Made by a program: the position numbers and the translations under genes
Assembly (NCBI RefSeq): GCF_004360225.1
Contig: NZ_SNUA01000011.1
Location: 62,001 to 126,000 of the forward strand
Length of the DNA: 64,000 nt
Direction of reading: 5' to 3'
Origin: Alcanivorax sp. 24
Lineage (GTDB): Bacteria > Pseudomonadota > Gammaproteobacteria > Pseudomonadales > Alcanivoracaceae
Shown: piece after piece, positions 22,507 to 61,795 of the stretch
How the letters are laid out: each line of letters starts with the position of its first letter
Numbering within the stretch: the first letter of the stretch is position 1
The notes under the pieces: generated by a model
Seen by the model: only the letters and a program-made list of their open reading frames with translations
The model's database searches: none
What the model was told of the DNA's origin: nothing

Positions 22507-23378
22507 AACGAGTTGAACTGGTGAACGGCGATCTGCGTTTTCCGGCGTTGCTGGCCGGTGATGGCGAGCCGGTATTGTTGCTGCATGGTTTTCCGGATAC
22601 CCATGAGAACTGGGCGGATATCATGGAGCGGCTGGCAGGCGCCGGTTATACCGCCGTGGCCCCGGCATTGCGCGGCTATGCGCCGTCCTGTCAGCCCGGC
22701 AGCGGTGACTATGCGCTGACCGCCGCGTTGGAGGATCTGATGGCCTTCACCGACCAGTTGGGCGGACGCCTGCACCTGGTCGGCCATGATTGGGGCGCGG
22801 TGCTGGGCTACCTGGCCTGTGCCCGTTACCCGGAAACCTTCAGCTCTTTTTCCGCGCTGGCGATCCCGCCTTTGAAGCGCTTGCCCCAGGCGCTGTTGCG
22901 GGTGCCGGAGCAGTTGGGCTTGAGCGCCTATATTCCGTTTTTCCAACTGCCATTGGCGGCGGAGACCTGGCTCAACCGCAACGATCTGGACGGTGTCGCC
23001 ACGCTGTGGCGGCGCTGGTCGCCGGGCTGGGAAGGGGGACGGTATCTGGAACAGGCCAAGCACACTCTGGCCCAGCCCGGCGTCCTGGCCGCCGCCTTGG
23101 GCTGGTACCGGCACTTGCCCCGGCTATGGCGGCGGGACCTGCGTCAGGCCAGCAAAACACTGCTGGGAGAAACCCGGGTACCGACTCAGGTTCTACTGGG
23201 CGAAAGCGACGGCTGCATGAGCCCGCGCCTGTTGGACCACACCATATACCCCGCCGATTTTCCCGAGGGCTTGTACGCTCATACCGTGGAGAACGCCGGC
23301 CACTTCCTGCACCTGCAACAACCGGGCGCCGTGGCGGAGCTTTTGGTGGAGCACATTCGCAGAGAAGAAGGCAGTTAG
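22503..23378 (+). CDS. Alpha/beta hydrolase, epoxide hydrolase/dehalogenase-like
   Basis: 291 residues, starting with GTG at 22503 inside the acyP stop. The fold landmarks are the HGFPDTHENW oxyanion loop, the nucleophile elbow VGHDWGAVLGY with Asp96 as nucleophile, and the late histidine in TVENAGHFLHLQQP. An Asp nucleophile points to the epoxide hydrolase/haloalkane dehalogenase branch rather than esterases. The substrate is unknown. The stop codon TAG lies inside the first heptamer (GTTAGGA) of the repeat that follows. Confidence 0.85.
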   Translation: MKRVELVNGDLRFPALLAGDGEPVLLLHGFPDTHENWADIMERLAGAGYTAVAPALRGYAPSCQPGSGDYALTAALEDLMAFTDQLGGRLHLVGHDWGAVLGYLACARYPETFSSFSALAIPPLKRLPQALLRVPEQLGLSAYIPFFQLPLAAETWLNRNDLDGVATLWRRWSPGWEGGRYLEQAKHTLAQPGVLAAALGWYRHLPRLWRRDLRQASKTLLGETRVPTQVLLGESDGCMSPRLLDHTIYPADFPEGLYAHTVENAGHFLHLQQPGAVAELLVEHIRREEGS

Positions 23379-23576
23379 GAGTGAATAGTGAATAGTTAAT
23401 AGCGAAAAAAAAAGTGCGGTTCATACGTTTTCTGTGGGAGCTTACCTGCAAGCGAATATTACTGAAAACTTGGGCAAACTCCATTCGCTTGCAAGCAAGC
23501 TTCCCACAGTAGCTAAGGCTCACCTGTTTTGGTTTTTCATTTTTTCACTGTTAACTATTCACTGTTCACTCTTAAT
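23374..23576. repeat. Heptamer-armed composite element with inner REP, family 1 (GTGAATA variant)
   Basis: Left arm 23374-23401: GTTAGGA, GTGAATA, GTGAATA, GTTAATA, then GCGAAAA. Right arm 23549-23576 reads, inverted, ATTAAGA, GTGAACA, GTGAATA, GTTAACA. A REP-like palindrome lies inside (23432-23510). The left arm contains the stop codon of the hydrolase gene and the right arm contains the stop codon of the convergent DUF1835 gene. Confidence 0.85.
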
Positions 23577-24859
23577 TGCCTTGTCGGTTGTCCACTACTC
23601 TTGTCAATGCACCAGCAGGCGTGGGTGCCGCCGATGGGGATGCCGCCGACCCAGCGTACCGGTGGACGACTGTCCAGCCAGTTACGGTAGCCACTAAGCA
23701 CACCATGGCCGGCATGGGTGACATCCAGCAGGCCCTCATCCCAGGAATGCCCCGGCGTGCGCTGGTATTCCAGCAGCGCGCGTTCGCCTTCCAGCAGGGG
23801 TTTTAAAACCCAACGGAACATTTGTGGAGATAAATAGGGAAGAGGTTCACGCTCCTCCTGCAAGGCGTGATACAGCCCGCGCACGGAAATCGGGCCCCGT
23901 TCCGCCACCAGTTGAGCCGCCAGTTGTTCGCTCAGTCCCAGGCCAGTGGCCGGGTCCGGCAGTTCCAACAGGTGACGGCGCAGCGCCCGGCCGAGCATGG
24001 GCAACGCCGAGGTAGTGTGCCGGGACAGGCGGTAAAGCGCTTCGGGGTGGTTGGCGGTCACCGCGTGCCAGGCCGCTTCGCCCAGCGATAATTGCGCGGT
24101 ATTGACGGTGTACCGTCGTCGCCACAACCAGTTGAGGACAAAGGGCGCCAGTTGGGTAAGACAGCGGAAACGCTTGACCCCCGGCACTGATTCCACCGCG
24201 ATCAATTGCAGCGGACCGCCATGGGGATTATGGCTGAACTGGTGCAACAGCCGGGCCAGAATCAGTTGGTCCTGACTGTCGTGCTGGAACCACAATACCA
24301 CGCGCCGTCCGCGCGCGACTTGCGCCAGCCGGTCCTGAATCTCTTGCTGCTCCCGTGCCACCCGTTGCCAGTCCTGTTGCCGCAGATTGGCCAGAAAGCG
24401 GCTGCGCCGCTGCCGGAACAGCGGTATCGGTTCGTTACGCAGGGGGCCGAGACTGTACGGGTCCGCCAGGCTCACTATTTCACCGACGAAGCCGGCTTCA
24501 CGTAGACGTGGGGTCAGGTCCATGGCGCCGCACAGATGCAGAGTGGCCTCATCGCCGTCGGGGCTGAGGCCGTACAGCGGCTGGCTGTGTTCCAGCTCGC
24601 GAATGTGGTGGCTCTGCGAGGCCCAGTCCGCGAAACCCTGTTCTCGAGCGATGGCGCGCCGGGCATCGGCCAGGGTGAAGGGTTGACGTTGTACACGGCG
24701 TCGCGCGGCCAGCCTCAACACCGCCGGGGTGTGATGTCGGCGCGCTCCGCGAAGCAGATTGCAGGCACGGCGTTCCTGTCTTTCCAGCGTTAGATGGCCG
24801 TGTACAAAGGGGCTGGATGGAGCGGGTACTGCGGAAGACATGTCATGGTCCCTGGACAT
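23555..24859 (-). CDS. DUF1835 domain protein
   Basis: 434 residues. The ATG at 24859 gives MSRDHDMSS; a second ATG at 24841 is also possible. An N-terminal segment of ~100 residues (ankyrin-like, DARRAIAREQGFADWASQS) precedes the DUF1835 region (HLCGAMDLTPRLREAGFVGEIVSLADPYSLGPL, from about residue 107). A WLWRRRYTVNTAQLSLGEAAWHAVTANHPEAL segment follows. Function unknown. The last ~7 residues (LRVNSE and stop) are encoded by the right heptamer arm of the adjacent repeat, so the original C-terminus may have been altered by the element. Confidence 0.82.
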   Translation of the reverse strand: MSRDHDMSSAVPAPSSPFVHGHLTLERQERRACNLLRGARRHHTPAVLRLAARRRVQRQPFTLADARRAIAREQGFADWASQSHHIRELEHSQPLYGLSPDGDEATLHLCGAMDLTPRLREAGFVGEIVSLADPYSLGPLRNEPIPLFRQRRSRFLANLRQQDWQRVAREQQEIQDRLAQVARGRRVVLWFQHDSQDQLILARLLHQFSHNPHGGPLQLIAVESVPGVKRFRCLTQLAPFVLNWLWRRRYTVNTAQLSLGEAAWHAVTANHPEALYRLSRHTTSALPMLGRALRRHLLELPDPATGLGLSEQLAAQLVAERGPISVRGLYHALQEEREPLPYLSPQMFRWVLKPLLEGERALLEYQRTPGHSWDEGLLDVTHAGHGVLSGYRNWLDSRPPVRWVGGIPIGGTHACWCIDKSSGQPTRQLRVNSE

Positions 24860-25021
24860 TCTTCAAACCGGTTCCTCCACCATAAATCGGTGAGGGAAAC
24901 GGTCAATATGCATACCGGCGGGAACGGCCAGGTTTTCATAAGTTTTACCAATCAAATAACACAGACACGCTGATTCGCCTTTGGCTCGCTAGCTCAGCCT
25001 TGCGGACATGATTTCGCACCG

Positions 25022-25092
25022 TATTCGCTGCCGAGGCAGCTTCCCACAGCGGCTTCGTGGTCCCTCTGTGGGAAGCTGGCTTGCCAGCGAAT
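25022..25092. repeat. REP-like palindrome downstream of the HSL-type esterase gene
   Basis: The arms are TTCGCTGCCGAGGCAGC and, inverted, GCTGGCTTGCCAGCGAAT around the constant CTTCCCACAGCGGCTTCG. The two arms carry different inner stems (TGCC-GA-GGCA and TGGC-AA-GCCA), so this copy is a mixed pair. Confidence 0.75.
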
Positions 25093-25123
25093 CATGGGGC
25101 ACCACCGGCTCACGAACCGCGAT

Positions 25124-26101
25124 TCAAGTTCGGGGCATCCGGCCCAGGAATTCACCGATACACCGATAGGTTTCCTCGCACGCCTCCGGCACCAGATCCT
25201 CCAGATTCAGGTAAGCGTGAATCATGTCGGGAAAATGTACGTGCTGGTGAGGGACGCCGACTTGATCCAGACGATCGCGGTAGCGCAGGCCCTCATCACG
25301 CAGCGGGCACAGGCCGGCGGTGATCACCAGGGTCTCCGGCATGCCCGCGCCCATGGGCATGTACAGCGGAGAATGGGCGCGCCGGTCCTCGCCGTGCTGG
25401 AAGTAATGGTCCACATACCATTCAATACGTGGTGTTTCCAACAAATAGCCGTGGCTGTTTTCCGTCAATGATGGCTGTTCCAGGGTGTAATCCAGGCTCG
25501 GGTAGATCAGTACCTGTCGTTGCGGGCGATGTTCGGTGTCGTCCTGCAACAGGGCGGAAATCGTGGCGGCCAAAGCGCCGCCGCCGGAGTCGCCGGCCAG
25601 CGTCAGCCACCGCTGTACCGGATAACCTTCCCGGGACAGCAGCGGGTAGAGTCCGCGTGTCACCGCCAGGCAGTCCTCCAGACCCGCCGGGTAGGGGTGT
25701 TCCGGCGCCAGCCGGTACTCCACCGACAGCAGCAGATGACCACTGGCCTCGGCCAGTTTGCGGCAGATCGGGTCGTACACCTGGACGCTGCCGGCCATGT
25801 GGCCGCCGCCGTGAAAAAACACACACACCGGCTTGCGCCGGCCCGGTGCCGGATCATAGGCGCGTACCGTGATGGCGTGCCCGTCCGCGTCCACAACCAG
25901 ATCGCGCACTTCGGCGATGTCGGGAATATCCGTGACCAGCGTTTCGGTCATCCCCGCCAGGCTGTCGCGCACCATGGCGGGGGTGGCGTCGATGCCTTTG
26001 TGGCGCTGTTCCTCGAGCAGGTGGTTGAGCCGGGTGAGCCAGGGCAACAGACCGGGGTGGAGAGTCTTGCTCAGCATGCCTCTCAACATTCCTCTCAGCA
26101 T
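25124..26101 (-). CDS. HSL-family alpha/beta hydrolase (esterase/lipase)
   Basis: 325 residues; in-frame ATGs at 26089 and 26077 (the latter with AGAGG before it) are alternative starts. The hormone-sensitive lipase pattern is complete: oxyanion motif FFHGGGHMAG, nucleophile elbow GDSGGGALA with catalytic Ser, and VITAGLCPLRDEGLRYRDRL and HFPDMIHAYLNL supplying Asp and His. It is a cytoplasmic carboxylester hydrolase for short or medium acyl esters. It is the last gene of a minus-strand run with two MaoC proteins and an acyl-CoA ligase, suggesting it frees an acid for CoA activation. Confidence 0.9.
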   Translation of the reverse strand: MLRGMLRGMLSKTLHPGLLPWLTRLNHLLEEQRHKGIDATPAMVRDSLAGMTETLVTDIPDIAEVRDLVVDADGHAITVRAYDPAPGRRKPVCVFFHGGGHMAGSVQVYDPICRKLAEASGHLLLSVEYRLAPEHPYPAGLEDCLAVTRGLYPLLSREGYPVQRWLTLAGDSGGGALAATISALLQDDTEHRPQRQVLIYPSLDYTLEQPSLTENSHGYLLETPRIEWYVDHYFQHGEDRRAHSPLYMPMGAGMPETLVITAGLCPLRDEGLRYRDRLDQVGVPHQHVHFPDMIHAYLNLEDLVPEACEETYRCIGEFLGRMPRT

Positions 26102-26478
26102 TGAAACAGCACCAGGGCTTCACCGGAACAGATCATCCGGCCATCGGCGCCGGTGCATTCGGTGGCCAGATTGACCAGCGCCTTATCGGCGCGCAGACGG
26201 GTCACGGTGACTTTGGCGGTGATCGCCTCGCCCACATCCGCGTCCTGTTCGAAGTGCAGGCTCTGCTTGAGATAGTTGGTGCCGTGGCCGGGCAGTTCCT
26301 CGCCGAGCAGATAGGAAAACAGACCGGCAATGAGCGGCTCCGGCACGGTGGCGCACCGGGCCTCCGGGAAGTCGACCAGCGCGCACCAGCGGTTCAGGTC
26401 CGCGGCGCTGAACTGACGGGAAACGGTGGCCTGGTCGCCGACCTTGAGGGCGTGAAAACGGGGCAGAGTCTCGCTCAC
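26095..26478 (-). CDS. MaoC-like hotdog-fold protein
   Basis: 127 residues. The hotdog pattern is recognisable (FHALKVGDQATVSRQFSAADLNRWCALVDF, then PLIAGLFSYLLGEELPGHGTNYLKQSLHF and VTVTRLRADKALVNLATECT). The usual D-x-NPxH catalytic motif of hydratase MaoC proteins is not obvious, so it may be a non-catalytic partner of the next-door MaoC protein or a thioesterase-like variant. It overlaps both neighbours by 4-7 bases. Pairs of short hotdog proteins often form heterodimeric enoyl-CoA hydratases; that is inference here. Confidence 0.75.
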   Translation of the reverse strand: MSETLPRFHALKVGDQATVSRQFSAADLNRWCALVDFPEARCATVPEPLIAGLFSYLLGEELPGHGTNYLKQSLHFEQDADVGEAITAKVTVTRLRADKALVNLATECTGADGRMICSGEALVLFQC

Positions 26479-26861
26479 GGGGTGTTCTCCTCGGCGCTGT
26501 GAATACGGGCGCGGCCTTCCAGGCAGACGCTGCCATCGGCCTTGATCACGCGGGTGGTGAACAGATCGTCCTGTTGCCGCGCCTCGACGATCATCGTCAA
26601 CTCTTCGCCGGCATAGGCGGGGGCGGGGAACATCAGTTCCTGCATGGACAGGGTGGCGCCGGGCCAGGACCGGGCGATCAGCGCGCGCAGATGGGAAAAC
26701 AACAGCATGCCATGGGATACGGTGGCGCCGAAGCGGGTCACCGAGGCGTACTGGGGATCCACGTGAATGGGATTGTGGTCGCCGCTGATCCCGGCGAAGT
26801 GATCAAAGTCCTGTTGGGACAAGGTCACGGCCTGCTCCAGCCGTGCTTTATTCAGCGCCAT
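26475..26861 (-). CDS. MaoC family (R)-specific enoyl-CoA hydratase
   Basis: 128 residues, a single hotdog domain. The hydratase signature is intact: FAGISGDHNPIHVDPQYASVTRFGATVSHGML, with Asp and His as the expected catalytic pair. It would hydrate 2-enoyl-CoA to (R)-3-hydroxyacyl-CoA. It is overlapped by the acyl-CoA ligase upstream (14 bases) and the second hotdog gene downstream (4 bases), so the three are one transcription unit. Confidence 0.88.
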   Translation of the reverse strand: MALNKARLEQAVTLSQQDFDHFAGISGDHNPIHVDPQYASVTRFGATVSHGMLLFSHLRALIARSWPGATLSMQELMFPAPAYAGEELTMIVEARQQDDLFTTRVIKADGSVCLEGRARIHSAEENTP

Positions 26862-28365
26862 TGCGCAACTCCTGTTTGGTGACTTTGCCCAGGGCGTTAC
26901 GGGGCAGTGCCTCCAGGCACTGGAAAACCTTGGGAACCTTGTAGCCGGCCAGCCGTTCGCGGCAGTGGGCGCGCAAGGCGTCCTCGTCGACGTTGCTGTC
27001 CGGACGCGGTACGTAGCAGGCCTTGCCTACTTCGCCCCAGCGCTGGTCGGCGATGCCCACCACCGCTACCTCGGCGATGGCCGGATGTTGCTCAAGTGCT
27101 TTTTCCACCTCGGCGGGATAGACGTTTTCGCCACCGGAGATGTACATGTCCTTCCAGCGATCGACGATGTAATAGAAGCCGTCCTCGTCGCGCCGGGCGA
27201 CGTCGCCGCTGTGCAGCCAGCCGTCGGCTTCGATGGCTTCGGCGGTGGCGTCGGGCCGGTTCCAGTAACCCGGCGTGATGTTGGGGCCGCGGATCAGCAG
27301 TTCGCCGGCTTCGCCGTCGGGCACGTCACGGCCGTCGCGGTCGACGATGCGGACTTCGGTAAGCAATTGCGGACGGCCCACGGAGCCGATTTTCTCAATC
27401 ACTTTGTCTTCGTCGAGCAAAAACACGGTGGGCCCGGTTTCGGTCATGCCCATGCCGGTGCGCACATGAATACCCTGATCCACATAACGCTGTGCCACGG
27501 GCAGGGACAGCGGGGCGCCGCCGCAACCCCAGGAACGCACCCGGCGCAGCCGCTCGCCGCTGAATCCCGGCTGCTCCAGCAGCGCCTGATATACCGCCGG
27601 TACGCCGAAGAAAATCGTCGCCCGCTGTTCCAGTACGTCGAGTGCCTGTCGCGGCTCGAAATTGCGCGCCACCAGCACGGCGCCGCCGACAAAAAACACC
27701 GCGCTGGAATAGAGATTGATGCCGGCGGTGTGGAACAGCGGCAGCACGTTCAGCAATACATCCTCGCCGGTGAGATTCACCGCCAGGCCGATGTTCAGGT
27801 AATTGGCCAGCATCATGCGAAACGTCTGCACCACGCCCTTGGGCCGGCCGGTGGTGCCGGAGGTGTAGAGCAGGTACCAGGGCGTGTCCGGACTCTTTTC
27901 CGGGTGCGCGCTGAGATCCGGGGCCACCTGTTGAAGATCCTGGTGATAGTGGCGTTCCGAGCCGACCGGCTGATCCAGCGCCACCAGCGTCAGGTCGCTG
28001 AAAACGTTTCCCAAGGCGCGGGCCGCGTCGGCCAGTTCGTCACCGAAGATCAAGGCCCCGGGTTGGCAGTCTTCCAACAGAACTTCCAGTTCCGGCACCG
28101 CCAGGCGCCAGTTCAGCGGCACCAGAATCAGGCCGGCCTTGGCGCAGCCGAACAGCATGGCGAAGAACTCCGCGCGGCTGTGACCGAGCCAGGCGAGCCG
28201 GTCGCCTTCCCGCAGTCCCCAATGCTCACGGGCCGCCGCCGCCAGCCGCGCGGCCCGCTCGTTGAGTCGCGCATAGTCGTAGCGTTCGCCGTCGTGCAGA
28301 TCTTCCAATGCCAGCCGGTCCGGGGTTACCCGGGCGCGTTGGGCCAGCAGGTCGAACATTTCCAT
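26848..28365 (-). CDS. AMP-dependent acyl-CoA synthetase/ligase
   Basis: 505 residues of the ANL superfamily. The phosphate loop is YTSGTTGRPKGVVQTF; the A5-A8 motifs are GMTETGPTVFLL and GWLHSGDVARRDEDGFYYIVDRWKDMYISGGENVYPAEVE; the catalytic Lys is in PRNALGKVTKQEL near the C-terminus. It activates a carboxylic acid to its CoA thioester through an acyl-adenylate. Length and motifs fit medium- or branched-chain acids; the exact acid is unknown. It is the first gene of the ligase-MaoC-MaoC-esterase unit. Confidence 0.9.
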   Translation of the reverse strand: MEMFDLLAQRARVTPDRLALEDLHDGERYDYARLNERAARLAAAAREHWGLREGDRLAWLGHSRAEFFAMLFGCAKAGLILVPLNWRLAVPELEVLLEDCQPGALIFGDELADAARALGNVFSDLTLVALDQPVGSERHYHQDLQQVAPDLSAHPEKSPDTPWYLLYTSGTTGRPKGVVQTFRMMLANYLNIGLAVNLTGEDVLLNVLPLFHTAGINLYSSAVFFVGGAVLVARNFEPRQALDVLEQRATIFFGVPAVYQALLEQPGFSGERLRRVRSWGCGGAPLSLPVAQRYVDQGIHVRTGMGMTETGPTVFLLDEDKVIEKIGSVGRPQLLTEVRIVDRDGRDVPDGEAGELLIRGPNITPGYWNRPDATAEAIEADGWLHSGDVARRDEDGFYYIVDRWKDMYISGGENVYPAEVEKALEQHPAIAEVAVVGIADQRWGEVGKACYVPRPDSNVDEDALRAHCRERLAGYKVPKVFQCLEALPRNALGKVTKQELRNGAE

Positions 28366-28434
28366 TGATGCCTCCGGTTTCTTGTTCCATGGGCGCGGGG
28401 CCGTCCACTGGCCGGATCCCCGCTCCCACCTTTT

Positions 28435-30906: not shown

Positions 30907-31051
30907 TGTGGTTCTCCTGATTGTTGTTGTTATGCCCTGATGGAGCCCGTGAACGGGCTCGCTCTTGCTGCTTGGGCGGTTGCGCCGGAAAAGAAGGGTG
31001 TTCCGGCGGTTCGCTCTCCCGTTTGATTCGCTGCGCTTCGGTGTTTCCGTA

Positions 31052-32433: not shown

Positions 32434-32467
32434 GGGCAAATCCTGTTTTGTTATTTGAAAACTGAAT

Positions 32468-38787: not shown

Positions 38788-39048
38788 GTTGACAGTTGAT
38801 AGTGGACAGTTGACAGCTCGCGGGACACGATAGATTAATCTGAAAAACAAGGAGGCCGCGTCCAAGGCTTGGGCGCGGCCTCCTTGCGTATAAACGATTA
38901 GGTTCAACTATGAGCAGCGGGTTGCGTATATGCAAATACGCCTTGCGGAAAAGCAATGTCTTTTTCTTTTCACTGTCAACTATCAACTGTCAACTGTCAA
39001 CTGTCAACTGTCAACTGTCAACTGTCAACTGTCAACTGTCAACTGTCA
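38788..39048. repeat. Heptamer-armed composite element, family 1, with expanded right arm
   Basis: Left arm 38788-38815: GTTGACA, GTTGATA, GTGGACA, GTTGACA. Right arm 38972-39048: eleven units of ACTGTCA (the second is ACTATCA), the inverse of the left unit. The core holds the terminator at 38845-38886 instead of a REP. The element starts 8 bases after the SDR stop and lies between convergent SDR and minE. The rest of the gap (39049-39195) shows nothing clear. Confidence 0.85.
38845..38886 (-). terminator. Rho-independent terminator of the min operon
   Basis: 12-bp perfect stem AAGGAGGCCGCG / CGCGGCCTCCTT (38849-38860 with 38874-38885), followed on the minus strand by TTTTT. It is 300 bases past the minE stop and sits inside the heptamer-armed element. 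It lacks a T-run in the plus direction. Confidence 0.65.
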
Positions 39049-39195
39049 ACTCCCTTAACGGGAGCCCGGTTCCATCCGTGGAACCTGGAGATCGATCAGG
39101 CCTTCAAGGGGTCACAGAAGGGAATCTGAAGGGGGCTCGCCGAACCGCAAAGATACTGTACGAAAGGACAGTGTGTCAAGGTTCGGCGATGGCGA

Positions 39196-45367: not shown

Positions 45368-45520
45368 GGTCATCTCCTTTGCCAACGTGAATGGCACCGG
45401 TGGCATCCGGTGTTGTCCCGTCCGTGTGCGCTCCCCCGCGACGACACTCGGGGACGACTTGAGTCTACCTTTATACCTGTGTTCGCGGGGGCTTTTAACC
45501 GTATTTGACGAGATGGCACC

Positions 45521-45712
45521 GGACGCTAGACGCCGGACGCTAAAGTCAAAACCCGGAGCTGCGGGCGTTGCGGAAATAAAAAAGCGCTTTGGTGCTTGCC
45601 AGGGGGTTGGGTCTGGTTTTGCATTACCGGCGTCCGGCGTCCGGCGTCCGGCGTCCGGCGTCCGGCGTCCGGCGTCCGGCGTCCGGCGTCCGGCGTCCGG
45701 CGTCCGGCGTCC
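45521..45712. repeat. Heptamer-armed element, family 3 (GGCGTCC), copy with 12 units
   Basis: Left arm 45521-45541: GGACGCT, AGACGCC, GGACGCT. The core has AAAGTCAAAACCCGG, AAATAAAAAAGCGC, and TGCTTGCCAGGG followed by GTTGGGTCTGGTTTTGCATTA. Right arm 45629-45712 is exactly twelve copies of GGCGTCC. It lies in the 422-bp divergent gap between fadE and cnoX. The remainder holds the promoters, but nothing could be assigned. Confidence 0.9.
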
Positions 45713-46725: not shown

Positions 46726-47411
46726 TGTGGGAAGCGGCCTTGGCCGTGAATGGTCAACCCGGCCGGGCAAAACCGTTCGCTTGCCAGCAAGCTTCCCACA
46801 GCGGCGTCGTAGTGCCATCCGTGGGAAGTGGCCTTGGCCGTGAATGGTCAACCCGGCCGGGCAAAACCGTTCGCTTGCCGGCAAGCTTCCCACAGCGGCG
46901 TCGTAGTGCCATCCGTGGGAAGCGGCCTTGGCCGTGAATGGTCAATCCTCCCGGGCAAAACCGTTCGCTTGCCAGCAAGCTTCCCACAGTGGCGTCGTAG
47001 TGCCGTCCGTGGGAAGTGGCCTTGGCCGTGAATGGTCAACCCGGCCGGGCAAACCGTTCGCTTGCCAGCAAGCTTCCCACAGCGGCGCCGTAGTGCCATC
47101 CGTGGGAAGCGGCCTTGGCCGCGAATGGTCAACCCGGCCGGGCAAAACCGTTCGCTTGCCAGCAAGCTTCCCACAGTGGCGCCATAGTGCCATCCGTGGG
47201 AAGCGGCCTTGGCCGTGAATGGTCAATCCTCCCGGGCAAAACCGTTCGCTTGCCAGCAAGCTTCCCACAGCGGCGCCGTAGTGCCATCCGTGGGAGGCGG
47301 CCTTGGCCGTGAATGGTCAATCCTCCCGGGCAAAACCGTTCGCTTGCCAGCAAGCTTCCCACAGCGGCGCCGTAGTGCCATCCGTGGGAAGCGGCCTTGG
47401 CCGCGAATGCC
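46726..47411. repeat. Tandem REP array, 94-bp period, about 7.3 copies
   Basis: The anchor GAATGGTCA recurs at 46748, 46842, 46936, 47030, 47123, 47217 and 47311, with a final variant at 47405. Six spacings are 94 bp and one is 93 bp (a missing A in the GGGCAAAACC run). Each unit holds a TTCGCTTGCCAGCAAGC arm, CTTCCCACAGYGGC, GTAGTGCC, then CCGTGGGA and a GGCCTTGGCC arm. The array fills most of the 1,037-bp gap between cnoX and amtB. Long open frames across it on both strands are by-products. Confidence 0.92.
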
Positions 47412-49010: not shown

Positions 49011-49036
49011 GGCGCTGGACGTTTGAGGCAAAGGGC

Positions 49037-49262
49037 CGGACGCCAGACGCTGGACGCCTGACGCTTTAGAACATCGGATCTTGGAACGTTGCGGATATAA
49101 ATAGGCGTTTTTAATCCTTGCCAGGGTGTTGGGTCTGGTTTTGCATTATCGGCGTCCGGCGTCCGGCGTCCGGCGTCCGGCGTCCGGCGTCCGGCGTCCG
49201 GCGTCCGGCGTCCGGCGTCCGGCGTCCGGCGTCCGGCGTCCGGCGTCCGGCGTCCGGCGTCC
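49037..49262. repeat. Heptamer-armed element, family 3 (GGCGTCC), copy with 16 units
   Basis: Left arm 49037-49064: GGACGCC, AGACGCT, GGACGCC, TGACGCT. Weaker heptamer-like units run back to the amtB stop codon at 49010. The core shares GTTGCGGATATAAATAG and CTTGCCAGGGTGTTGGG with the sister copies. Right arm 49151-49262 is exactly sixteen copies of GGCGTCC, then GGCGTAA. It fills the 315-bp gap between amtB and ppk2. Confidence 0.9.
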
Positions 49263-49325
49263 GGCGTAACGACAATGCCATGCCGGGACCGTTATGCTCG
49301 AAGTATCGCAACGGGAGACCCCGGC

Positions 49326-50721: not shown

Positions 50722-50814
50722 GACGCCGGACGCCGGACGCCGGACGCCGGACGCTAAAGTCAAAACCCGGGGCTGCGGGCATTGCGGGAATAAAAAAATT
50801 GCTGGGAGCAATTT
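50722..50814. repeat. Left half of a split family 3 heptamer element
   Basis: TGACGCC, then GGACGCC three times and GGACGCT (50722-50756), followed by the family core AAAGTCAAAACCCGG, GCTGCGGGCATTGCGGGAAT and AAAAAA. It continues into a 17-bp palindrome AATTGC-tggga-GCAATT (50798-50814). The right half is at 52111-52176, beyond the tandem REP array. Confidence 0.85.
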
Positions 50815-50889: not shown

Positions 50890-52033
50890 GCTGTGGGAAG
50901 CTTGCTGGCAAGCGAATCGCCAACGGCTCAGGGCATTCGCGGCCAAGCGGAGCGCCGCCCGGGCCGCTTCCCACAGCGGTTTCGTGGCGGACCTGTGGGA
51001 GACCAGCTTGCTGGCGAATTCCGACCCTTTGGTGTTGGGATATTCGCTTGCCAGCAAGCTTCCCACAGCGGCTTCGTGGCGGACCTGTGGGAGGCCAGCT
51101 TGCTGGCGAATTCCGGTCCTCTGGTGTTGGGATATTCGCTTGCCAGCAAGCTTCCCACAGCGGCTTCGTGGTAGATCCGTGGGAGGCCAGCTTGCTGGCG
51201 AATTCCGGTCCTCTGGTGTTGGGATATTCGCTTGCCAGCAAGCTTCCCACAGCGGCTTCGTGGTAGATCCGTGGGAGGCCAGCTTGCTAGCGAGTTCCGG
51301 CCCTCTGGTGTTGGGATATTCGCTTGCCAGCAAGCTTCCCACAGCGGCTTCGTGGCGGACCTGTGGGAGGCCAGCTTGCTGGCGAATTCCGGTCCTCTGG
51401 TGTTGGGATATTCGCTTGCCAGCAAGCTTCCCACAGCGGCTTCGTGGTAGATCCGTGGGAGGCCAGCTTGCTGGCGAATTCCGGTCCTCTGGTGTTGGGA
51501 TATTCGCTTGCCAGCAAGCTTCCCACAGCGGCTTCGTGGTAGATCCGTGGGAGGCCAGCTTGCTAGCGAGTTCCGGCCCTCTGGTGTTGGGATATTCGCT
51601 TGCCAGCAAGCTTCCCACAGCGGCTTCGTGGCGGACCTGTGGGAGGCCAGCTTGCTGGCGAATTCCGGTCCTCTGGTGTTGGGATATTCGCTTGCCAGCA
51701 AGCTTCCCACAGCGGCTTCGTGGCGGACCTGTGGGAGACCCGCTTGCTAGCGAATTCCGGCCCTCTGGTGTTGGGATATTCGCTTGCCAGCAAGCTTCCC
51801 ACAGCGGCTTCGTGGCGGATCCGTGGGAGGCCAGCTTGCTGGCGAATTCCGGCCCTCTGGTGTTGGGATATTCGCTTGCCAGCAAGCTTCCCACAGCGGC
51901 TTCGTGGCGGATCCGTGGGAGGCCAGCTTGCTAGCGAGTTCCGGCCCTCTGGTGTTGGGATATTCGCTTGCCAGCAAGCTTCCCACAGCGGCTTCGTGGT
52001 AGATCCGTGGGAGACCGGCTTGCCAGCGAATAT
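50890..52033. repeat. Tandem REP array, 92-bp period, about 12 copies
   Basis: The anchor TTGGGATATTCGCTTGCC recurs at exactly 92-bp steps: 51035, 51127, 51219, 51311, 51403, 51495, 51587, 51679, 51771, 51863, 51955. A diverged leader copy precedes (50890-51034). Each unit holds a TTGC-CA-GCAA arm and an inverted CCAGC-TT-GCTGG arm. Units 1-3 and 4-6 share the same variant bases, giving a 276-bp higher-order period. It fills the 1,610-bp gap between the SCP2 gene and yoaA. Open frames of up to 405 codons across it, on both strands, are by-products. Confidence 0.95.
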
Positions 52034-52110
52034 AGCGGCTTGGTAGCCCCTTCCGTTACAGACCCGTGCCCATGATTGAAGCGCGGTGGCCCGCCAAACC
52101 GCGATGAACC

Positions 52111-52176: not shown

Positions 52177-52276
52177 TCCTTTGGCCTCTCTCTCCGATAT
52201 CCGCTATCCTCTGCCACCCGACCCGATGTTGCCGGCATGCCCCGGCGACCTTTCCCGACCGGTTCAAGGATACGCC

Positions 52277-54196: not shown

Positions 54197-54245
54197 CCGT
54201 GTTCCGCCGCATCGGCTCAGCCGCCTTCTCGGGAGTAGCCAGCCA

Positions 54246-55360: not shown

Positions 55361-55365
55361 GCCGA

Positions 55366-56181: not shown

Positions 56182-56906
56182 TACCGCTGGCCTGTCTCCC
56201 CGGCGCCCCGGATCTGAAGGACGTTCCCCGTCTTGAGGATGCGGAGCGGGCCCGGGAGCAAGGCGTTGAACTGGTGTTGGGGCGCGTCGACGACCGTCTC
56301 TCCTTGTGGGCGCCGGCACGGAAGGCGGCGCCTTTGTGCGTGGATTTCCTCGGTGGCCGCCAGGGGTATCGCCTGGCGGCGGACCGGGTGCGTCATGAGC
56401 GGTTGATCAAGGCGCTGGGGAAAGTCATCGGGACGCCGGCGCGGGTTTGTGATCTCACCACCGGTCTCGGGCGCGATTCCGCGTTGATGGCTCAGGCCGG
56501 TTTTCAGGTTCTGATGGTGGAACGCGAGCCGGTGTTGCACGCCTTGCTGGTGGATGGTTTGGCTCGTGCCGCCGGCACGCCGTTGGCATCCCATCTCACG
56601 CTGTTGCCGCTATCGGATGCGCGGGACCTGGTGGCCGCGTTGACCGGGCCGTTCCACGCGGTGTTTCTTGATCCGATGTTCCCGCCCAGGGAGAAAAGCG
56701 CGGCGGTGAAACAGGATCTGCGCTGGTTACAGCAGCTTTGCCGGTACCCGGACCAGGACGAAGAACAGGCGCTACTGGCGCTGGCGCGGGGATTGGATGC
56801 CCGCAAGGTGGTGGTCAAGCGCCCGCGCCGGGCGCCGCCGCTGGCGGCGGTGGCGGCTTCGCACAGTCTCGAGGGAAAGACCGTTCGCTTCGATGTTTAC
56901 ACGTGA
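56178..56906 (+). CDS. rsmJ: 16S rRNA (guanine-1516 N2)-methyltransferase RsmJ
   Basis: 242 residues with a TTG start at 56178 overlapping the uppP stop (TTGA); no ATG lies near the expected N-terminus. The RsmJ pattern is clear: [26 protein letters not shown] loop [20 protein letters not shown], and [21 protein letters not shown], the family catalytic block. The methyltransferase modifies G1516 of 16S rRNA using SAM. It ends the co-directional run from yoaA; a REP follows. Confidence 0.92.
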
Positions 56907-56938
56907 TGAGCGCTGAAAAGAGATCGAGGTCACCCCTC

Positions 56939-57009
56939 ATTCGCGAGCAAGCTCGCTTCCCACAGCGGTGTTCCGAAGCCTCTGTGGGAAGCGAGCTTGC
57001 TCGCGAATG
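56939..57009. repeat. REP-like palindrome between convergent rsmJ and plsB
   Basis: Arms ATTCGCGAGCAAGCTCGC and its inverse around CTTCCCACAG. Inner stem GAGC-AA-GCTC, a stem variant not used by the other copies. It lies between the 3' ends of rsmJ and plsB. Confidence 0.82.
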
Positions 57010-57074
57010 GGGTTGCCCGCAAAAGAGCAGGTCCGCAACGGTGGGACGTCACTGGTTTACGGACCGCGACCTCT

Positions 57075-59585
57075 TTAAGCGGACGTCTGGCTGTCCGGCT
57101 CCTCCGCCAGGGCGCGTTCCAGCTCCGGGACCCGTGTCACCCGCTGGATCGCCTGGCTGACGTCGGTACTGAGGATACGGCGGGCCTCGTCATCGAGAGC
57201 TCGCAGATGGTCGCCGAACTGCAGCATGCCGGCCTCGTCCTTCCACACCAGCCCGGTATCCAGCAGCTGCTGGATGAAGGTGCGCAACACCACCTTGTCG
57301 AAAAACTCCGGTGAGTTGAATTCATACAGCAGCGACAGCCTTTGCGTGGTGCGGCTGGCCAGTTCCGCCAGTTGCTCCGCTTCCAGCCGGCCGCCACCGT
57401 ATTGCACCAGCAGGCGAATGGTCAGATAATAACGCTCCAGGGAGGGCATCACCGTCTGGCCGAGATGGGCCAGCATGTCCGACGCCACGGTGTGAATCGG
57501 CGCGCCATGCAGACAATCGCCGTCGCGTTCCACCAGACCGTGCGCTTCCAGCATGCCGACGATGCGATTGACGGCGTCGGTCAGTTCGTCGCCTTCCTGC
57601 CAGTGCAGGAAATACTCGTTACGGAAGAACGGGTAGAGCAGGGCGACCATGCGGTGCAGGGTATCCTGACTCAGGCTGCGGGCATTGAAGAACAGCGAAC
57701 AAATCAATCCCGGCAATACGAACAAATGCAGGCTGTTGTTGCGCACGTAGGCCATCTGCAGCGCGGTGGCCGGATCCGTGGTGACCACATCACCGAGAGG
57801 GTGGGACACCCGCAGCAGAAACTCGTGCTTGAGCCCGTATTCGATCAGGGTATCGGCGTCGGTGTCCGCCAGGCAGGCGGTGTCACTGTAGGGCGCTTCG
57901 TTCAGCAGCGTGATGTACAGCTGCAATTGCTGCCGCAGCTGTTGCAGATCCATGGTGTGTTTGGGCGTTGCCAATAGTGCCAGACTGATCAGGTTGACCG
58001 GATTGGCCACCGCGGCGGCGTTGATGCGCGTGGCCACCTCCTGGCCCAAGGCGTTGACCGCGTGTTTGAACCAGTCTGGTGACTCCTGGGCGCTCAGGGT
58101 CTCGGCGCGCCATCCTTCCCGGTGGTCATCAAGGAAGTCCACCAGCTTGATCGGTTCACCGAAGTTCACATGCACCTGACCGAAGTGGCTGCGCAGCACC
58201 TTCACGGATTTCAGCAGACCGAAAACGGATTCCTTTTTCTTTTTCTTGCCATGCAGCTCGCCAATATAGGAACCACCTTCGATGACCTTTTCGTAACCCA
58301 CATAAACGGGCACGAAGGCAATTGGCTTACGGGCGTCACGGAGAAAACTGCGCAATGTCATCGCCAGCATGCCGGTGCGTGGCTGCAACATGCGGCCGCT
58401 GCGGCTGCGGCCGCCTTCGATGAAGTATTCGATGGAAAATCCGCGCGCGGTGATGGTGTGCAAATACTCATAGAACACCGCTGAGTAGAGCGGATTGTCG
58501 CGGAAGCTGCGGCGCATGAAGAAGGCGCCGCCACGTCGCAGAATGGTGCCCACCACCGGCAGATTGAGATTGATGCCGGCGGCGATGTGCGGGGGCACCA
58601 GGCCGTTCCGGTAGACCACGAACGACAGCAATAAATAGTCGATGTGGCTGCGGTGGCAGGGCACATAGATGACCTCGTGGTCTCGCGCCACCTGGGTCAG
58701 ATTGTCCAGATTGTAGAGACGAATGCCGTCGTAAAGGCGGTTCCATAGCCAGTTGAGAAACAGCTCCAGCGCCCGGATTACCGTGTGGGAATAATCGGCG
58801 GCGATTTCCAGCGCGTAGCCACGGGCGCGGGCGGTGACTTTCTCTTCCTTGTCCTCGCTGCTGGCCATCTCCTCCTGGATGGCCTGACGTACCGCCGGAG
58901 ACTGAATGATGTCGTTGGTCAGGGTGCGCCGGTGAGACAAGTCGGGGCCGATGGCCGCTTCCTGCTGACGGCGGAAGTGCACCCGCAGAACACGGGAGGT
59001 CTTGCGTACCACCTGATCCTCGTCATCGGATTGGTCGGCGAGCACGCGCAGGGACACCGGCGGGCTGAACTGCAGGTACAGATCCCGGCCCTGGGTGAGG
59101 ATGATAAGAAACTTCTTGATGAAACCCGGTGGTGCCCAGGTATCGGAGAACAGAATCCGCCACAGGGAGTTTTCTTTTTCCGGCTGTCGTCCCCAGAACA
59201 CCGACACCGGCACCAGTTGCACGTCCATGTCCGGGTTGTCGTGCAGGGCGCGCACCAGTTTCCGCAGGCGTGGCGGCACCAGGGCATCCCGTTGACGAGT
59301 GCCGGTCACTCCGCGCTTATACAGGTAGAAATAGTTGCGGCGCAGATGCTGTTTGCCCAGACTGAGAGAGGAATTGGCGGGGCTCAGTTTCTGCTTTCGG
59401 GTGGCCTGATGCACCACCGCCGCGTCCGCCACGGAACGGTCGCGCATTACATAGACCACCGGTTTGTTCGGGTCCAGTTGCAGTTCTTCGGGATCCGCCG
59501 GTAGCGCGGTGGCACGGGTGCACAGCCGCATGAAGGCGCGGATCAGCAAAAACAACAGTCGGTCGAGGCCTAGCCATGGACTCAT
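57075..59585 (-). CDS. plsB: Glycerol-3-phosphate 1-O-acyltransferase PlsB
   Basis: 836 residues, normal for PlsB. Acyltransferase block I is VPCHRSHIDYLLLSF (His-x4-Asp, about residue 315); block II is GGAFFMRRSFR, block III SIEYFIEGGRSRSGRML and block IV AFVPVYVGYEKVIEG. The start ATG at 59585 opens MSPWLGLDRLLFLLIRAFMRL, an amphipathic membrane-associated stretch. It acylates glycerol-3-phosphate with acyl-ACP or acyl-CoA as the first step of phospholipid synthesis. The 211-bp divergent gap to the DyP gene holds both promoters, not assigned. Confidence 0.95.
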   Translation of the reverse strand: MSPWLGLDRLLFLLIRAFMRLCTRATALPADPEELQLDPNKPVVYVMRDRSVADAAVVHQATRKQKLSPANSSLSLGKQHLRRNYFYLYKRGVTGTRQRDALVPPRLRKLVRALHDNPDMDVQLVPVSVFWGRQPEKENSLWRILFSDTWAPPGFIKKFLIILTQGRDLYLQFSPPVSLRVLADQSDDEDQVVRKTSRVLRVHFRRQQEAAIGPDLSHRRTLTNDIIQSPAVRQAIQEEMASSEDKEEKVTARARGYALEIAADYSHTVIRALELFLNWLWNRLYDGIRLYNLDNLTQVARDHEVIYVPCHRSHIDYLLLSFVVYRNGLVPPHIAAGINLNLPVVGTILRRGGAFFMRRSFRDNPLYSAVFYEYLHTITARGFSIEYFIEGGRSRSGRMLQPRTGMLAMTLRSFLRDARKPIAFVPVYVGYEKVIEGGSYIGELHGKKKKKESVFGLLKSVKVLRSHFGQVHVNFGEPIKLVDFLDDHREGWRAETLSAQESPDWFKHAVNALGQEVATRINAAAVANPVNLISLALLATPKHTMDLQQLRQQLQLYITLLNEAPYSDTACLADTDADTLIEYGLKHEFLLRVSHPLGDVVTTDPATALQMAYVRNNSLHLFVLPGLICSLFFNARSLSQDTLHRMVALLYPFFRNEYFLHWQEGDELTDAVNRIVGMLEAHGLVERDGDCLHGAPIHTVASDMLAHLGQTVMPSLERYYLTIRLLVQYGGGRLEAEQLAELASRTTQRLSLLYEFNSPEFFDKVVLRTFIQQLLDTGLVWKDEAGMLQFGDHLRALDDEARRILSTDVSQAIQRVTRVPELERALAEEPDSQTSA

Positions 59586-59796
59586 AAAGCGAGCTCTTGG
59601 GTATCCGGGTAGAGGTCGATTCTACCGGACCGGGGCCGGGAGCGCCCACCATGATGATTCGCACTGGCGCGGCGCCCGGCCGCGTCCGCGGTCATGGCCT
59701 TGCCCGAATCGATTAACCTTGCCGCTCGTATGGTATTTCCGTTCGCAATCCGCGATCATCCTGATTCGCGATACCCCCGTATTAAAGGAGTAACCC

Positions 59797-60660
59797 GTGT
59801 TCGAGCACCAGGCCGGCCTGTTTGACCGTCACTATACCCATCATCTTTTTCTTGAGTTTGCCCTCGGCGCGGGCGCCGACATGGACGAGATTCGCCTGGC
59901 TTTGCGCGAGGTGCTGGCGCGGGCACCAGCCAATACCCCGTTGTTGATGGCGTTCGGTCCCGGGTTATGGCGGAAGCTGTCACGGGCCTTCACCTTCCCG
60001 CCGTTTTCTCTGGAGGGCAAGGCGCCCTCCACCCAGGGGGACTTGCTGATCTGGATCCAGGCGGAGAACCCCAGTGACCTGTTCGATACCGGCCTGGCGG
60101 CGTCACGGCGGTTGCGCGCGGCCCTGGCGTTGCAGCTGGAAGTGCAGGGTTTTGTTTACCACGATATGCGCGATCTGTCCGGCTTCGTCGATGGCATCGG
60201 CAACCCCACCGGCGACAAGGCCCTGGCCGCGGCGGTGATTCCGGAGGGACAACCCGGAGCGGGTGGCAGTTGGATGATCACGCAGAAATGGGTGCACAAG
60301 CTGGAAAACTTCCAGGCTTTGCCGGTGGAAGAGCAGGAAAAGGTGTTCGGCCGCACCAAAGTCGACGCGGTGGAGTTCGATGAAGAGAGCATGCCGGACA
60401 ATTCCCATGTGGGCCGCACCGACGTGGATCATGAGGGTGTGCCACAGAAAATCTGGCGCCGGTCGGTGCCTTATGGCACCACCACCGAACACGGTTCCTA
60501 CTTCATTGCATTCACCTGTGAACGGGAACGTTTTGAGTTCCTGCTGCGGCGGATGTACGGCATGATCGATGGCGTCCGCGATCGCCTGCTGGATTACAGC
60601 AGGCCGGTCACGGGTTCCTGGTGGTACGCGCCCAGTCAGGAATGGCTGAGCGCACTCTGA
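59797..60660 (+). CDS. Dye-decolorizing (DyP-type) heme peroxidase
   Basis: 287 residues from GTG at 59797 (AAAGGAGTAACCC before it). The DyP family hallmark GFVDGIGNP (G-x-x-D-G) sits near residue 129, with the proximal heme region DNSHVGRTDVDHEG and KIWRRSVPYG near 210-230. No Tat or Sec signal is visible, so it is cytoplasmic or encapsulin-bound rather than exported; no encapsulin gene is adjacent. It uses hydrogen peroxide to oxidise dyes or aromatics; the natural substrate is unknown. It overlaps the EamA-type gene by 22 bases. Confidence 0.92.
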   Translation: MFEHQAGLFDRHYTHHLFLEFALGAGADMDEIRLALREVLARAPANTPLLMAFGPGLWRKLSRAFTFPPFSLEGKAPSTQGDLLIWIQAENPSDLFDTGLAASRRLRAALALQLEVQGFVYHDMRDLSGFVDGIGNPTGDKALAAAVIPEGQPGAGGSWMITQKWVHKLENFQALPVEEQEKVFGRTKVDAVEFDEESMPDNSHVGRTDVDHEGVPQKIWRRSVPYGTTTEHGSYFIAFTCERERFEFLLRRMYGMIDGVRDRLLDYSRPVTGSWWYAPSQEWLSAL

Positions 60661-61559
60661 ACGGCCGCCAAGCGGGCGGGCAGGACGGCGTCGCGCCGCC
60701 GCCCGCACCGGCGCCGGCTCCGCGCCCCCTTACCGGCGTCCTGCTGATGGCCGCCGGCGTCGGCATCTTGCCGGTGATGGACAGTCTGGCCAAACACCTC
60801 AGCGATGAGTACCACGTGGTTCAGGTCACCTGGGCTCGCTATCTGTTCCATTTTCTGCTGCTGGGCGCGTTGTTATTATGGCGTCTGCCGTTGTCCGCGT
60901 TGATTCCCCACCATGCCGGTCTGCAGGTTATCCGCAGTGCTTTCCTGCTCAGTACCACTCTTTGTTATTTCGGTGCCATTGCCTTTTTGCCGCTCGCCAA
61001 TGCCCTGGCTCTGGCGTTTCTCGGGCCGCTGGTCAGTACCGCTCTGGCACCCCTGATTCTGGGGGAAAGCGCCGGCCCGCGTCGCTGGATCGCGGTGGCG
61101 GTGGGTTTTCTTGGCACTCTGGTGGTGATCCGTCCCGGCTGGGGGGAGTTCCACTGGGCTTCCTTGCTGGGCTTGGGGGCGGGCGTGTCCTATGGACTTT
61201 ACCAACTCACCACCCGGCGCCTGTCCGGCAGCGGCCGCCCCTCGGTGACTCTGTTTTACACCTCGGTATTCGGTCTGGCGGTGCTCAGTCTGGTCGTGCC
61301 GCTGGTCTGGCGCTGGCCGGAGCCCGCCAGCTGGGGGCTGATGCTGTTGATGGGGTCGGTGGGCGCATTGGCGCACTTCCTCATCATCCGTGCCTTCGAG
61401 TACGCCAGTGCCCCGGTGTTGTCCCCGGTCAGTTATATGGAAATGGTCTCCGCCGTTACCCTGGGCTGGCTGATCTTCGGCGACTTCCCCGACGCCTGGA
61501 CCTGGGCCGGTATTGGCCTGATCGTGGTCAGCGGACTATTGATTGTTATCTGGGAATGA
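60639..61559 (+). CDS. EamA/DMT-superfamily exporter
   Basis: 306 residues from ATG at 60639; GTG at 60621 is also possible and neither has a strong ribosome-binding site. Ten hydrophobic helices make two EamA repeats. The first half has LPVMDSLAKHLSDEYHVVQVTWARYLFHFLLLGALLLW and the second SYMEMVSAVTLGWLIFGDFPDAWTWAGIGLIVVSGLLIV. Such proteins export metabolites such as amino acids, or are of unknown substrate. Its N-terminus is Pro/Ala-rich. It starts inside the DyP gene and is probably cotranscribed with it. A heptamer element begins 9 bases after its stop codon. Confidence 0.85.
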   Translation, partial: GMAERTLNGRQAGGQDGVAPPPAPAPAPRPLTGVLLMAAGVGILPVMDSLAKHLSDEYHVVQVTWARYLFHFLLLGALLLWRLPLSALIPHHAGLQVIRSAFLLSTTLCYFGAIAFLPLANALALAFLGPLVSTALAPLILGESAGPRRWIAVAVGFLGTLVVIRPGWGEFHWASLLGLGAGVSYGLYQLTTRRLSGSGRPSVTLFYTSVFGLAVLSLVVPLVWRWPEPASWGLMLLMGSVGALAHFLIIRAFEYASAPVLSPVSYMEMVSAVTLGWLIFGDFPDAWTWAGIGLIVVSGLLIVIWE

Positions 61560-61567
61560 TAAGAGCT

Positions 61568-61795
61568 GTTGACAGTTGATAGTGGACAGTTGACAGCGGA
61601 AAGAAATGCGGAAGTGCAAAAGCCATTTGCGTATCAACAAAGTCGATTCATGCCTTTTCTGTGGGAAGCTTGCTTGCAAGCGAATGCCGTCAAGCGCCTG
61701 AACGAGCCCCATTCGCTTGCAAGCAAGCTTCCCACAGCGGCTAAAGATCACCTGTTTTTGTTTTCCGCTGTCAACTGTCCACTATCAACTGTCAA
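61568..61795. repeat. Heptamer-armed composite element with inner REP, family 1, symmetrical copy
   Basis: Left arm 61568-61595: GTTGACA, GTTGATA, GTGGACA, GTTGACA, then GCGGAAA. Right arm 61768-61795, its inverse: CTGTCAA, CTGTCCA, CTATCAA, CTGTCAA, preceded by TTTTCCG. The inner REP has arms at about 61659-61683 and 61710-61738 (inner stem TTGC-AA-GCAA). The element starts 9 bases after one stop codon and ends 6 bases before the convergent aldehyde dehydrogenase stop. Confidence 0.92.

What the first reader, a model, noticed from the sequence alone, without database searches (positions are those of the whole stretch)
23374..61795. Family 1 heptamer-armed elements: four-unit arms with position-specific heptamers
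Five copies (5230, 12443, 23374, 38788, 61568) each begin with four 7-bp units in fixed order: GTTrAyA, (GTTGATA, GTGAATA or GGGAACA), (GTGGACA or GTGAATA), GTTrAyA, then GC and an A-rich stretch. Unit 3 almost always starts GTG and the A-rich tail always follows unit 4. The whole four-unit arm is therefore inherited as a block and is not random slippage. Four copies have an inverted right arm 150-200 bp away; one (38788) has expanded that arm to eleven units. The cores differ (REP, terminator or plain). This looks like a mobile or dispersing composite intergenic element with heptamer ends.
Basis: seen in the sequence. Interest (0 to 1): 0.8.

Follow-up and report, generated by a model that had tools for sequence, protein, structure and literature searches.

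The report
Gene-end palindrome cassettes with heptamer arms
In oil-degrading marine bacteria, short palindromic DNA cassettes with seven-letter repeat arms sit right at the ends of genes; between related species they stay in place while their middles flip over or whole cassettes are exchanged, so a supposedly quiet part of the genome is rewritten in an orderly way.

Summary
In detail: five left arms and four inverted right arms; shuffles give no run of three units. The own genome has 102 arm hits in 61 clusters; all 36 two-arm clusters are inverted pairs. Arms are tied to genes: 84 of 102 start within 20 bp of the stop codon of a gene running into them (control 56 of 684), mostly between convergent genes.

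The "mobile element" reading is only partly right. Sites are conserved: 51 of 61 own clusters mapped to relative G006, 50 of them with arms. No target duplication was seen (0 of 70). The content changes. Both arms share one heptamer dialect in 106 of 115 elements. Where dialects differ between genomes no core is orthologous (0 of 72 comparisons); where they agree, 33 of 50 are. Arms and core are thus replaced together. Orthologous cores are often inverted (6 of 10, 3 of 18, 2 of 3).

Best reading: gene-end palindromic cassettes whose arms are matched and cores flipped by template switching, with whole-cassette replacement by an unknown route. Exact arms were found in Alcanivoracaceae and one bin of unchecked family.

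The parts
5230..5257 (+). site A, left arm of four heptamers directly after a stop codon; no right arm, a REP-like pair follows
   Evidence: in G006, G007 and G008 the gap holds a REP pair and no arm
12443..12470 (+). site B, left arm (A-dialect)
12471..12629 (.). site B core
   Evidence: orthologous and same orientation in G007 and G008, replaced in G006
12630..12657 (-). site B, right arm, abutting the stop of the gene on the minus strand
23374..23401 (+). site C, left arm (A-dialect); the stop codon of the left gene lies inside unit 1
23402..23548 (.). site C core with inverted REP pair
23549..23576 (-). site C, right arm
38788..38815 (+). site D, left arm (G-dialect)
38816..38973 (.). site D core with GAGGCCGCG hairpin; inverted relative to G006
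   Evidence: scores 65 forward, 262 reverse
38974..39050 (-). site D, right arm expanded to eleven units
61568..61595 (+). site E, left arm (G-dialect)
61596..61768 (.). site E core with inverted REP pair; inverted relative to G006 (18 forward, 139 reverse), but only seventh best among 33 G006 cores, so not counted as clean
61769..61796 (-). site E, right arm, exact inverse of the left arm
45513..45540 (+). GC-rich dialect, short left arm
45627..45712 (-). GC-rich dialect, right arm expanded to about 12 units
49035..49064 (+). GC-rich dialect, four-unit left arm
49150..49267 (-). GC-rich dialect, right arm expanded to about 17 units
50722..50754 (+). GC-rich dialect, single arm of about five units, followed by the same core start as at 45541

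Best explanation
These are gene-end palindromic cassettes: outer purines, four heptamers, a core with a strong hairpin (an inverted REP pair or a GAGGCCGCG stem), then the same arm inverted. Most arms start at the stop codon of the gene running into them, so convergent mRNAs should end in one long shared stem-loop (inferred). The sites are stable over species divergence. Two processes rewrite the content. (1) Within a cassette lineage, DNA replication template switching between the inverted arms keeps the two arms alike and now and then inverts the core (outcome shown, mechanism inferred). (2) At a fixed site a whole cassette, arms and core together, is sometimes replaced by a cassette of another heptamer dialect (outcome shown; the route, such as ectopic conversion from another copy or insertion plus loss of the old one, is not resolved). 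The likely use is a two-sided mRNA 3' end, as terminator or 3' stabiliser (inferred; weakly supported).
For: Arms at sense stop codons: 84 of 102 own and 85 of 102 G006 arms within 20 bp (two of the 104 G006 hits were not fetched), control 56 of 684. Own paired clusters between convergent genes 29 of 36, against 32 of 188 neighbouring gene pairs in rough gene calls. All 36 two-arm clusters are +- in each of two genomes. Arms within an element are alike: own distance 3.51 against 5.33 between elements, 0 of 5000 shuffles, 37 elements, one cluster dropped; dialects GG 58, AA 48, 9 others, of 115. Core inversions with collinear flanks: own-G006 6 inverted and 4 same, G007-G008 3 and 15, G027-G031 2 and 1. 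Replacement as a unit: different dialect 0 of 72 orthologous cores, same dialect 33 of 50, 18 mixed cases set aside; in comparisons across the two groups own/G006 and G007/G008, 8 of 10 same-dialect but 0 of 67 different-dialect cores are orthologous (summed; sites recur between genome pairs). Flanks run on to within a few bases of the arms in most of 20 sites. Stem covariation in 18 elements: 95.5% of arm cells paired, 22 of 50 pairs with two-sided change, 0 of 500 shuffles. RNA folds z -18.9 and -16.5 for two elements. Template switching between inverted repeats is published as causing arm homogenisation and spacer inversion (PMC8604942, abstract and passages) and as keeping RNA stems paired (PMC8794818, abstract and start of introduction).
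Against: G006 alone shows no arm matching beyond its genome-wide uniformity (2.47 against 2.60; 1188 of 5000 shuffles reach it). Two other genome pairs showed no inversion among their few orthologous cores: G006-G007 2 same and 0 inverted, own-G007 3 and 0. Cores of about 100-200 bp are far longer than the spacers of a few bases inverted in the yeast paper. Terminator-like sites are in only 34 of 73 elements in either direction (three shuffles 15-23) and 13 in both (shuffles 0-2), and none was found in the stretch around site D. The dialect blocks in the covariation set are related by descent, so those cells are not independent events; the number of further pair types does not exceed the shuffles (86 of 500).
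Confidence: 0.5

Rival explanations
1. A MITE-like non-autonomous transposon: the arms are terminal inverted repeats recognised by a transposase, and dialects are subfamilies amplified in different genomes.
For: Near-perfect terminal inverted repeats; 61 and 66 clusters in two genomes; the exact consensus arm 26 times in the own genome and 52 in G006; genome-specific dominant dialects: dialect-1 arms 19 in G027, 5 in G031, 0 in G029, dialect-3 pattern 1, 22 and 11; whole-unit replacement.
Against: No target duplication (0 of 70; G027 2 bp in 2 of 14, 1.07 expected). Sites are conserved between species at about 91% identity. Many cores are unlike each other between sites outside the REP or hairpin modules. 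The three 1.4-kb pairs looked at contain one and the same insertion sequence. No match of site E in plasmids or phages.
Confidence: 0.2
2. A dedicated site-specific recombinase or invertase acts on the heptamer arms, flipping cores and exchanging cassettes between sites, much as suggested for dRS3 repeats and a phage integrase in Neisseria.
For: Core inversion between near-exact arms and whole-cassette exchange at fixed sites; genome-specific arm dialects would fit a changing recognition protein.
Against: Flips look slow (3 of 18 between genomes about 94-95% identical, 6 of 10 at about 91%). No candidate gene was looked for.
Confidence: 0.12
3. Pure selection on an RNA stem: arms stay matched only because each change on one side is later compensated on the other.
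For: Strong covariation and folding; gene-end position.
Against: In the arm helix two-sided changes outnumber one-sided ones 46 cells to 8 (summed; related sequences). Whole dialects change at once, together with the core. Core inversion needs a DNA event.
Confidence: 0.1
4. Assembly artefact: inverted repeats make assemblers flip or swap cores.
For: Own, G007, G008, G027 and G031 are in many contigs; arms are near-identical across copies.
Against: Arms of about 30-45 bp are shorter than ordinary reads (inference). The cleanly inverted cores are each other's best match and have diverged in sequence. Dialect-core linkage would not arise from mis-assembly.
Confidence: 0.04

Closest known systems
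Neisserial intergenic mosaic elements (NIMEs: RS repeats with dRS3)
   Same: Short repeats go with interchangeable intergenic modules of 30-160 bp; recombination between the short repeats has been proposed (PMC3898611, passages read).
   Different: dRS3 is a 20-bp ATTCCC(N8)GGGAAT motif, absent from the window even with one mismatch. Here the flanks are 28-bp four-heptamer arms tied to stop codons, in several dialects linked to the core.
REP, BIME and REPIN elements
   Same: Type I cores are inverted REP-like pairs (likeness to REPs by eye and recall); one own core is an array of about ten REP-like units.
   Different: REPs here are cargo between heptamer arms; type II cores have a different hairpin. 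No REP transposase was looked for. Of PMC3116915 I saw the search listing and one reference-list hit.
Intergenic heptamer direct repeats (TAACTGA in Beggiatoaceae, Cyanobacteria and Bacteroidetes)
   Same: Seven-base direct repeats in gaps between genes, patchily distributed (PMC4679880, passages read).
   Different: Those were noticed particularly just upstream of start codons and as direct repeats, with one indirect repeat in the genome described; here they are ordered four-unit arms in inverted pairs downstream of stop codons.
Template-switch products at short inverted repeats
   Same: Arm homogenisation and spacer inversion (PMC8604942, PMC8794818).
   Different: Shown there for short spacers in yeast genes and for stems of RNA genes, not for dispersed bacterial cassettes with cores of about 100-200 bp.

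Membership tests
MITE | terminal inverted repeats | tested here: met
   36 of 36 two-arm clusters inverted in each of two genomes
MITE | target-site duplication | tested here: not met
   0 of 70 pairs with an adjacent duplication of 2-9 bp in own and G006; G027 2 bp in 2 of 14, 1.07 expected
MITE | related autonomous transposon with the same ends | tested here: inconclusive
   three long pairs looked at hold one insertion sequence; its ends were read in one of them and differ from the arms; no full search
MITE | filled and empty orthologous sites | tested here: inconclusive
   site D has no element in three distant congeners; two of 13 G027 sites hold a REP-like pair in G031; no clean junction
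NIME/dRS3 | ATTCCC(N8)GGGAAT repeats | tested here: not met
   0 matches in the window with up to 1 mismatch
NIME/dRS3 | short repeats flanking interchangeable modules | tested here: met
   cores of several kinds between the same arms
BIME/REPIN | paired inverted REPs | tested here: met
   in type I cores only, by reading
BIME/REPIN | RAYT transposase partner | not tested
   no search made
Bidirectional intrinsic terminator | GC-rich hairpin with T-tract on both strands | tested here: inconclusive
   both strands in 13 of 73 elements (shuffles 0-2), either strand in 34 of 73 (shuffles 15-23); G027 4 and 8 of 14; none by the pattern scan around site D
Rfam families | match above gathering score | tested here: not met
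   0 in the window

The most novel reading that the evidence does not exclude
A gene-end cassette exchange system: stop-codon-adjacent slots hold palindromic cassettes whose heptamer arms act as address tags, and a genome-specific trans-acting factor favours one dialect, so that most slots of a genome switch dialect and core together while the slots stay fixed.
Probability: 0.18. Interest if true: 0.88.

Novelty: new variant of a known kind. Interest (0 to 1): 0.66.

Why it matters
Bacterial intergenic repeats are usually seen either as decaying mobile elements or as passive hairpins. Here the slots are stable, the content turns over as a linked unit, and genomes that are close in their genes can carry different dialects at the same slots: G006 is closer to G007 by genes, but its cassettes resemble those of the more distant own genome. 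This gives a natural system for measuring template switching, core inversion and cassette replacement, and a set of gene ends on which to test whether long shared 3' stems matter to convergent genes.

Tried and rejected
Slippage as the whole story: rejected, because unit order, arm pairing and dialect matching persist over species; slippage could explain long arms such as the eleven units at site D. Autonomous transposon in the 1.4-kb pairs: rejected for the three looked at. Target duplications: none. Plasmid or phage carriage of site E: no match. Rfam: no match in the window. Simple vertical descent of cassettes does not fit easily: element content follows own+G006 against G007+G008, while gene identity puts G006 nearer G007 (window stretch 95.85% against own-G006 90.61%; 20 sites 92.81%). 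G007-G008 at the 20 sites is 94.29%, so a tree with G007 and G008 as sisters would ease but not remove this. My first count that four own sites lack arms in G006 was wrong for three of them on reading. Many own-G006 matches among REP-type cores are not each other's best match, so I used only the clean ones; the looser count was 9 inverted, 6 same, 4 ambiguous and 14 unrelated. Three of the 20 stretches (L281, L286, L287) could not be compared at both flanks. Three of the 21 elements (L260, L268, L279) were left out of alignment A2. Integron attC sites were thought of from memory and left; not tested by a tool.
Full report
OBSERVATION. In 50 shuffles of the window no run of three or more units appeared. 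Corrections: unit 1 at 23374 and unit 4 at 5230 deviate, the A-rich tail is not found at 38788, and 5230 has no right arm.

GENOME-WIDE. The exact 29-base G-dialect arm occurs 26 times in the own genome and 52 times in G006, never with the reversed control pattern, and in 11 of 57 genomes searched, the own genome included, in 2 of 29 genera. With up to three mismatches there are 70 matches in the own genome against 25 for the reversed pattern. With the 31-base arm the species collection gave 44 stretches, 41 of them titled Alcanivorax, Alloalcanivorax or Alcanivoracaceae and 3 from one bin titled only 'Pseudomonadales bacterium', whose family I did not look up; records near the own genome may be left out there. 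Of 369 gammaproteobacterial genomes, the own one included, 9 hold a four-unit run of the class; the places listed for the other eight (a capped list) are mostly runs of one to three unit types. A sequence-only model of the arm gives 102 hits in the own genome (61 clusters) and 104 in G006 (66 clusters). Two-arm clusters are +- in 36 of 36 in each; none is ++, -- or -+. The rest are singles (23 own, 29 G006, of which six are halves of pairs split by an insertion sequence) and multi-arm clusters (2 and 1).

POSITION. In the own genome 29 of 36 paired clusters lie between convergent genes, 4 in << and 3 in >>; in G006 25 of the 35 fetched. Convergent neighbours are 32 of 188 in rough gene calls on nine stretches. 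84 of 102 own arms and 85 of 102 fetched G006 arms begin within 20 bp of the stop codon of a same-strand open frame; random positions give 56 of 684. So an arm belongs to a gene end, and the pair arises mostly where two gene ends face each other. Gene calls here rest on open frames and third-base GC, not on annotation.

ANATOMY. Cores are of two main kinds: an inverted REP-like pair with alternative half modules, and a GAGGCCGCG hairpin with CGCG boxes near the ends. In one own element the core is an array of about ten REP-like units, and in three G006 elements an insertion sequence with rve and HTH_Tnp_1 domains sits in the core (calling it IS3-type is my reading of these). Two elements folded as RNA form one long stem (z -18.9 and -16.5). 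In 18 elements of genus g8 the arm helix is 95.5% paired with two-sided changes at 15 of 31 pairs, and the hairpin 88.6% paired with two-sided changes at 7 of 19. None of 500 shuffles reaches the observed percentage paired, two-sided changes or covariation score; the number of further pair types does not stand out (86 of 500). The sequences are related, so these cells are not independent events.

STABLE SITES, CHANGING CONTENT. 51 of 61 own clusters map to fetched G006 stretches. Four seemed to lack arms there, but reading showed arms at three; only site A lacks one. At the 20 extra sites sought in G007 and G008 all 20 flanks were found in both. Where both ends could be read, arms stand at the same gene ends, offset by a few bases in most rows of the 20 sites printed, with exceptions such as C18:47591 and the right end at C7:112608.

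INVERSION. With flanks collinear, cores that are each other's best match by a margin are inverted in 6 and in the same orientation in 4 cases for own-G006, 3 and 15 for G007-G008, 0 and 2 for G006-G007, 0 and 3 for own-G007, and 2 and 1 for G027-G031 in another genus (13 sites, 2 of them without an arm pair in G031). Further own-G006 core matches are REP-type and not unique, so they are left out of these counts.

REPLACEMENT AS A UNIT. Scoring each arm by the fourth base of its units gives 58 GG, 48 AA and 9 other elements of 115 in four genomes, at sites chosen from the own genome's clusters of two or more arms. The own genome is GG in 25 and AA in 6 of 36, G006 GG in 31 of 33, G007 AA in 20 of 22 and G008 AA in 22 of 24. 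In 72 comparisons between different dialects at the same site no core is orthologous; in 50 within a dialect 33 are; 18 mixed ones are set aside, 5 of them orthologous. Most different-dialect comparisons are between the groups own/G006 and G007/G008. Within those cross-group comparisons 8 of 10 same-dialect and 0 of 67 different-dialect cores are orthologous; within own-G006 the figures are 9 of 22 and 0 of 5 (summed; the same sites recur between genome pairs, so these are not independent). Between G027 and G031 the three sites with an orthologous core keep dialect 1, and at the sites with dialect 3 (ATTGATA ATTGAGA ATGGATA ATTGATA) or dialect 2 no core beats the best non-orthologous match clearly; unit 3 keeps TGG in dialects 1 and 3. 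The dialect-3 pattern has 22 matches in G031, 11 in G029 and 1 in G027. Content does not follow gene relatedness: G006 is nearer G007 (95.85% in the window stretch; 92.81% at the 20 sites) than the own genome (90.61%), yet its cassettes are like those of the own genome. I cannot say whether this reflects old polymorphism, exchange between species or convergent sweeps.

MECHANISM. Template switching between inverted repeats is reported to homogenise arms and invert spacers (PMC8604942, abstract and passages) and to keep RNA stems paired (PMC8794818, abstract and start of the introduction). That covers arm matching and core inversion, though the spacers there are a few bases long. It does not explain whole-cassette replacement, for which ectopic conversion or insertion with loss of the old copy are open. 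No target duplication is seen. A 3'-end role is plausible from position and folding, but canonical terminator features are present in only part of the set (34 of 73 in either direction, 13 in both; none around site D).

WIDER CLASS. A scan that assumes no heptamer sequence finds the same layout with GC-rich heptamers in this window (45513/45630, 49035/49154) and with several other heptamers in related genomes (AAGCTNC, AAGTTNC, GAGTTTC, GTTAAAA types, mostly single cases), and none in 10 shuffles of the window. In one search some rows may be overlapping copies of one element. Arms near a sense stop codon are 160 of 192, 54 of 60 and 23 of 26 for the three commonest AT-type groups and 14 of 24 for the commonest GC-rich group; no random control was run for that count. 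The GC-rich arm, with one mismatch allowed, is in 6 of 57 genomes.

LITERATURE. Nine searches gave no listed title or abstract start that describes these elements; only the top rows of each were seen, and subscription papers are not held. A small-RNA survey of A. dieselolei B-5 (PMC9788540, passages) does not mention them in the passages seen. G007, G008, G027 and G031 have contig lengths equal to records titled A. balearicus MACL04, A. xenomutans JC109, Alcanivorax sp. DSM 26293 and A. jadensis T9.

Noticed in passing
window 46727-47409 and 50966-52031: Long tandem arrays of 92-94 bp units made of REP-like pairs (7 and about 12 copies).
   Followed up: no
window 45513-45712, 49035-49267, 50722-50754: GC-rich heptamer arrays that follow the same inverted-arm layout, with one arm expanded to about 12 and 17 units; the two paired cores look alike.
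   Followed up: partly
L089, L102, L103: The same insertion sequence lies inside the cores of three G006 cassettes, as if the cassettes were safe landing places.
   Followed up: partly
L096 about 8590-9700: In the own genome the gap between two arms is filled by about ten REP-like units, so REP arrays can grow inside a cassette.
   Followed up: partly
own C2:117351 (L008): A hybrid element: left arm in A-dialect, right arm in G-dialect, which suggests half replacement.
   Followed up: partly
window 38974-39050 and other G-dialect arms: The heptamer GTTGACA contains TTGACA, the sigma-70 -35 consensus; the promoter scan at site D lists one such match inside the expanded arm. Whether arms start transcripts is untested.
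   Followed up: no
G302, G304, G387: Other gammaproteobacteria carry many runs of GTGAATA or GGGAATA; whether these form inverted pairs at gene ends was not tested.
   Followed up: no
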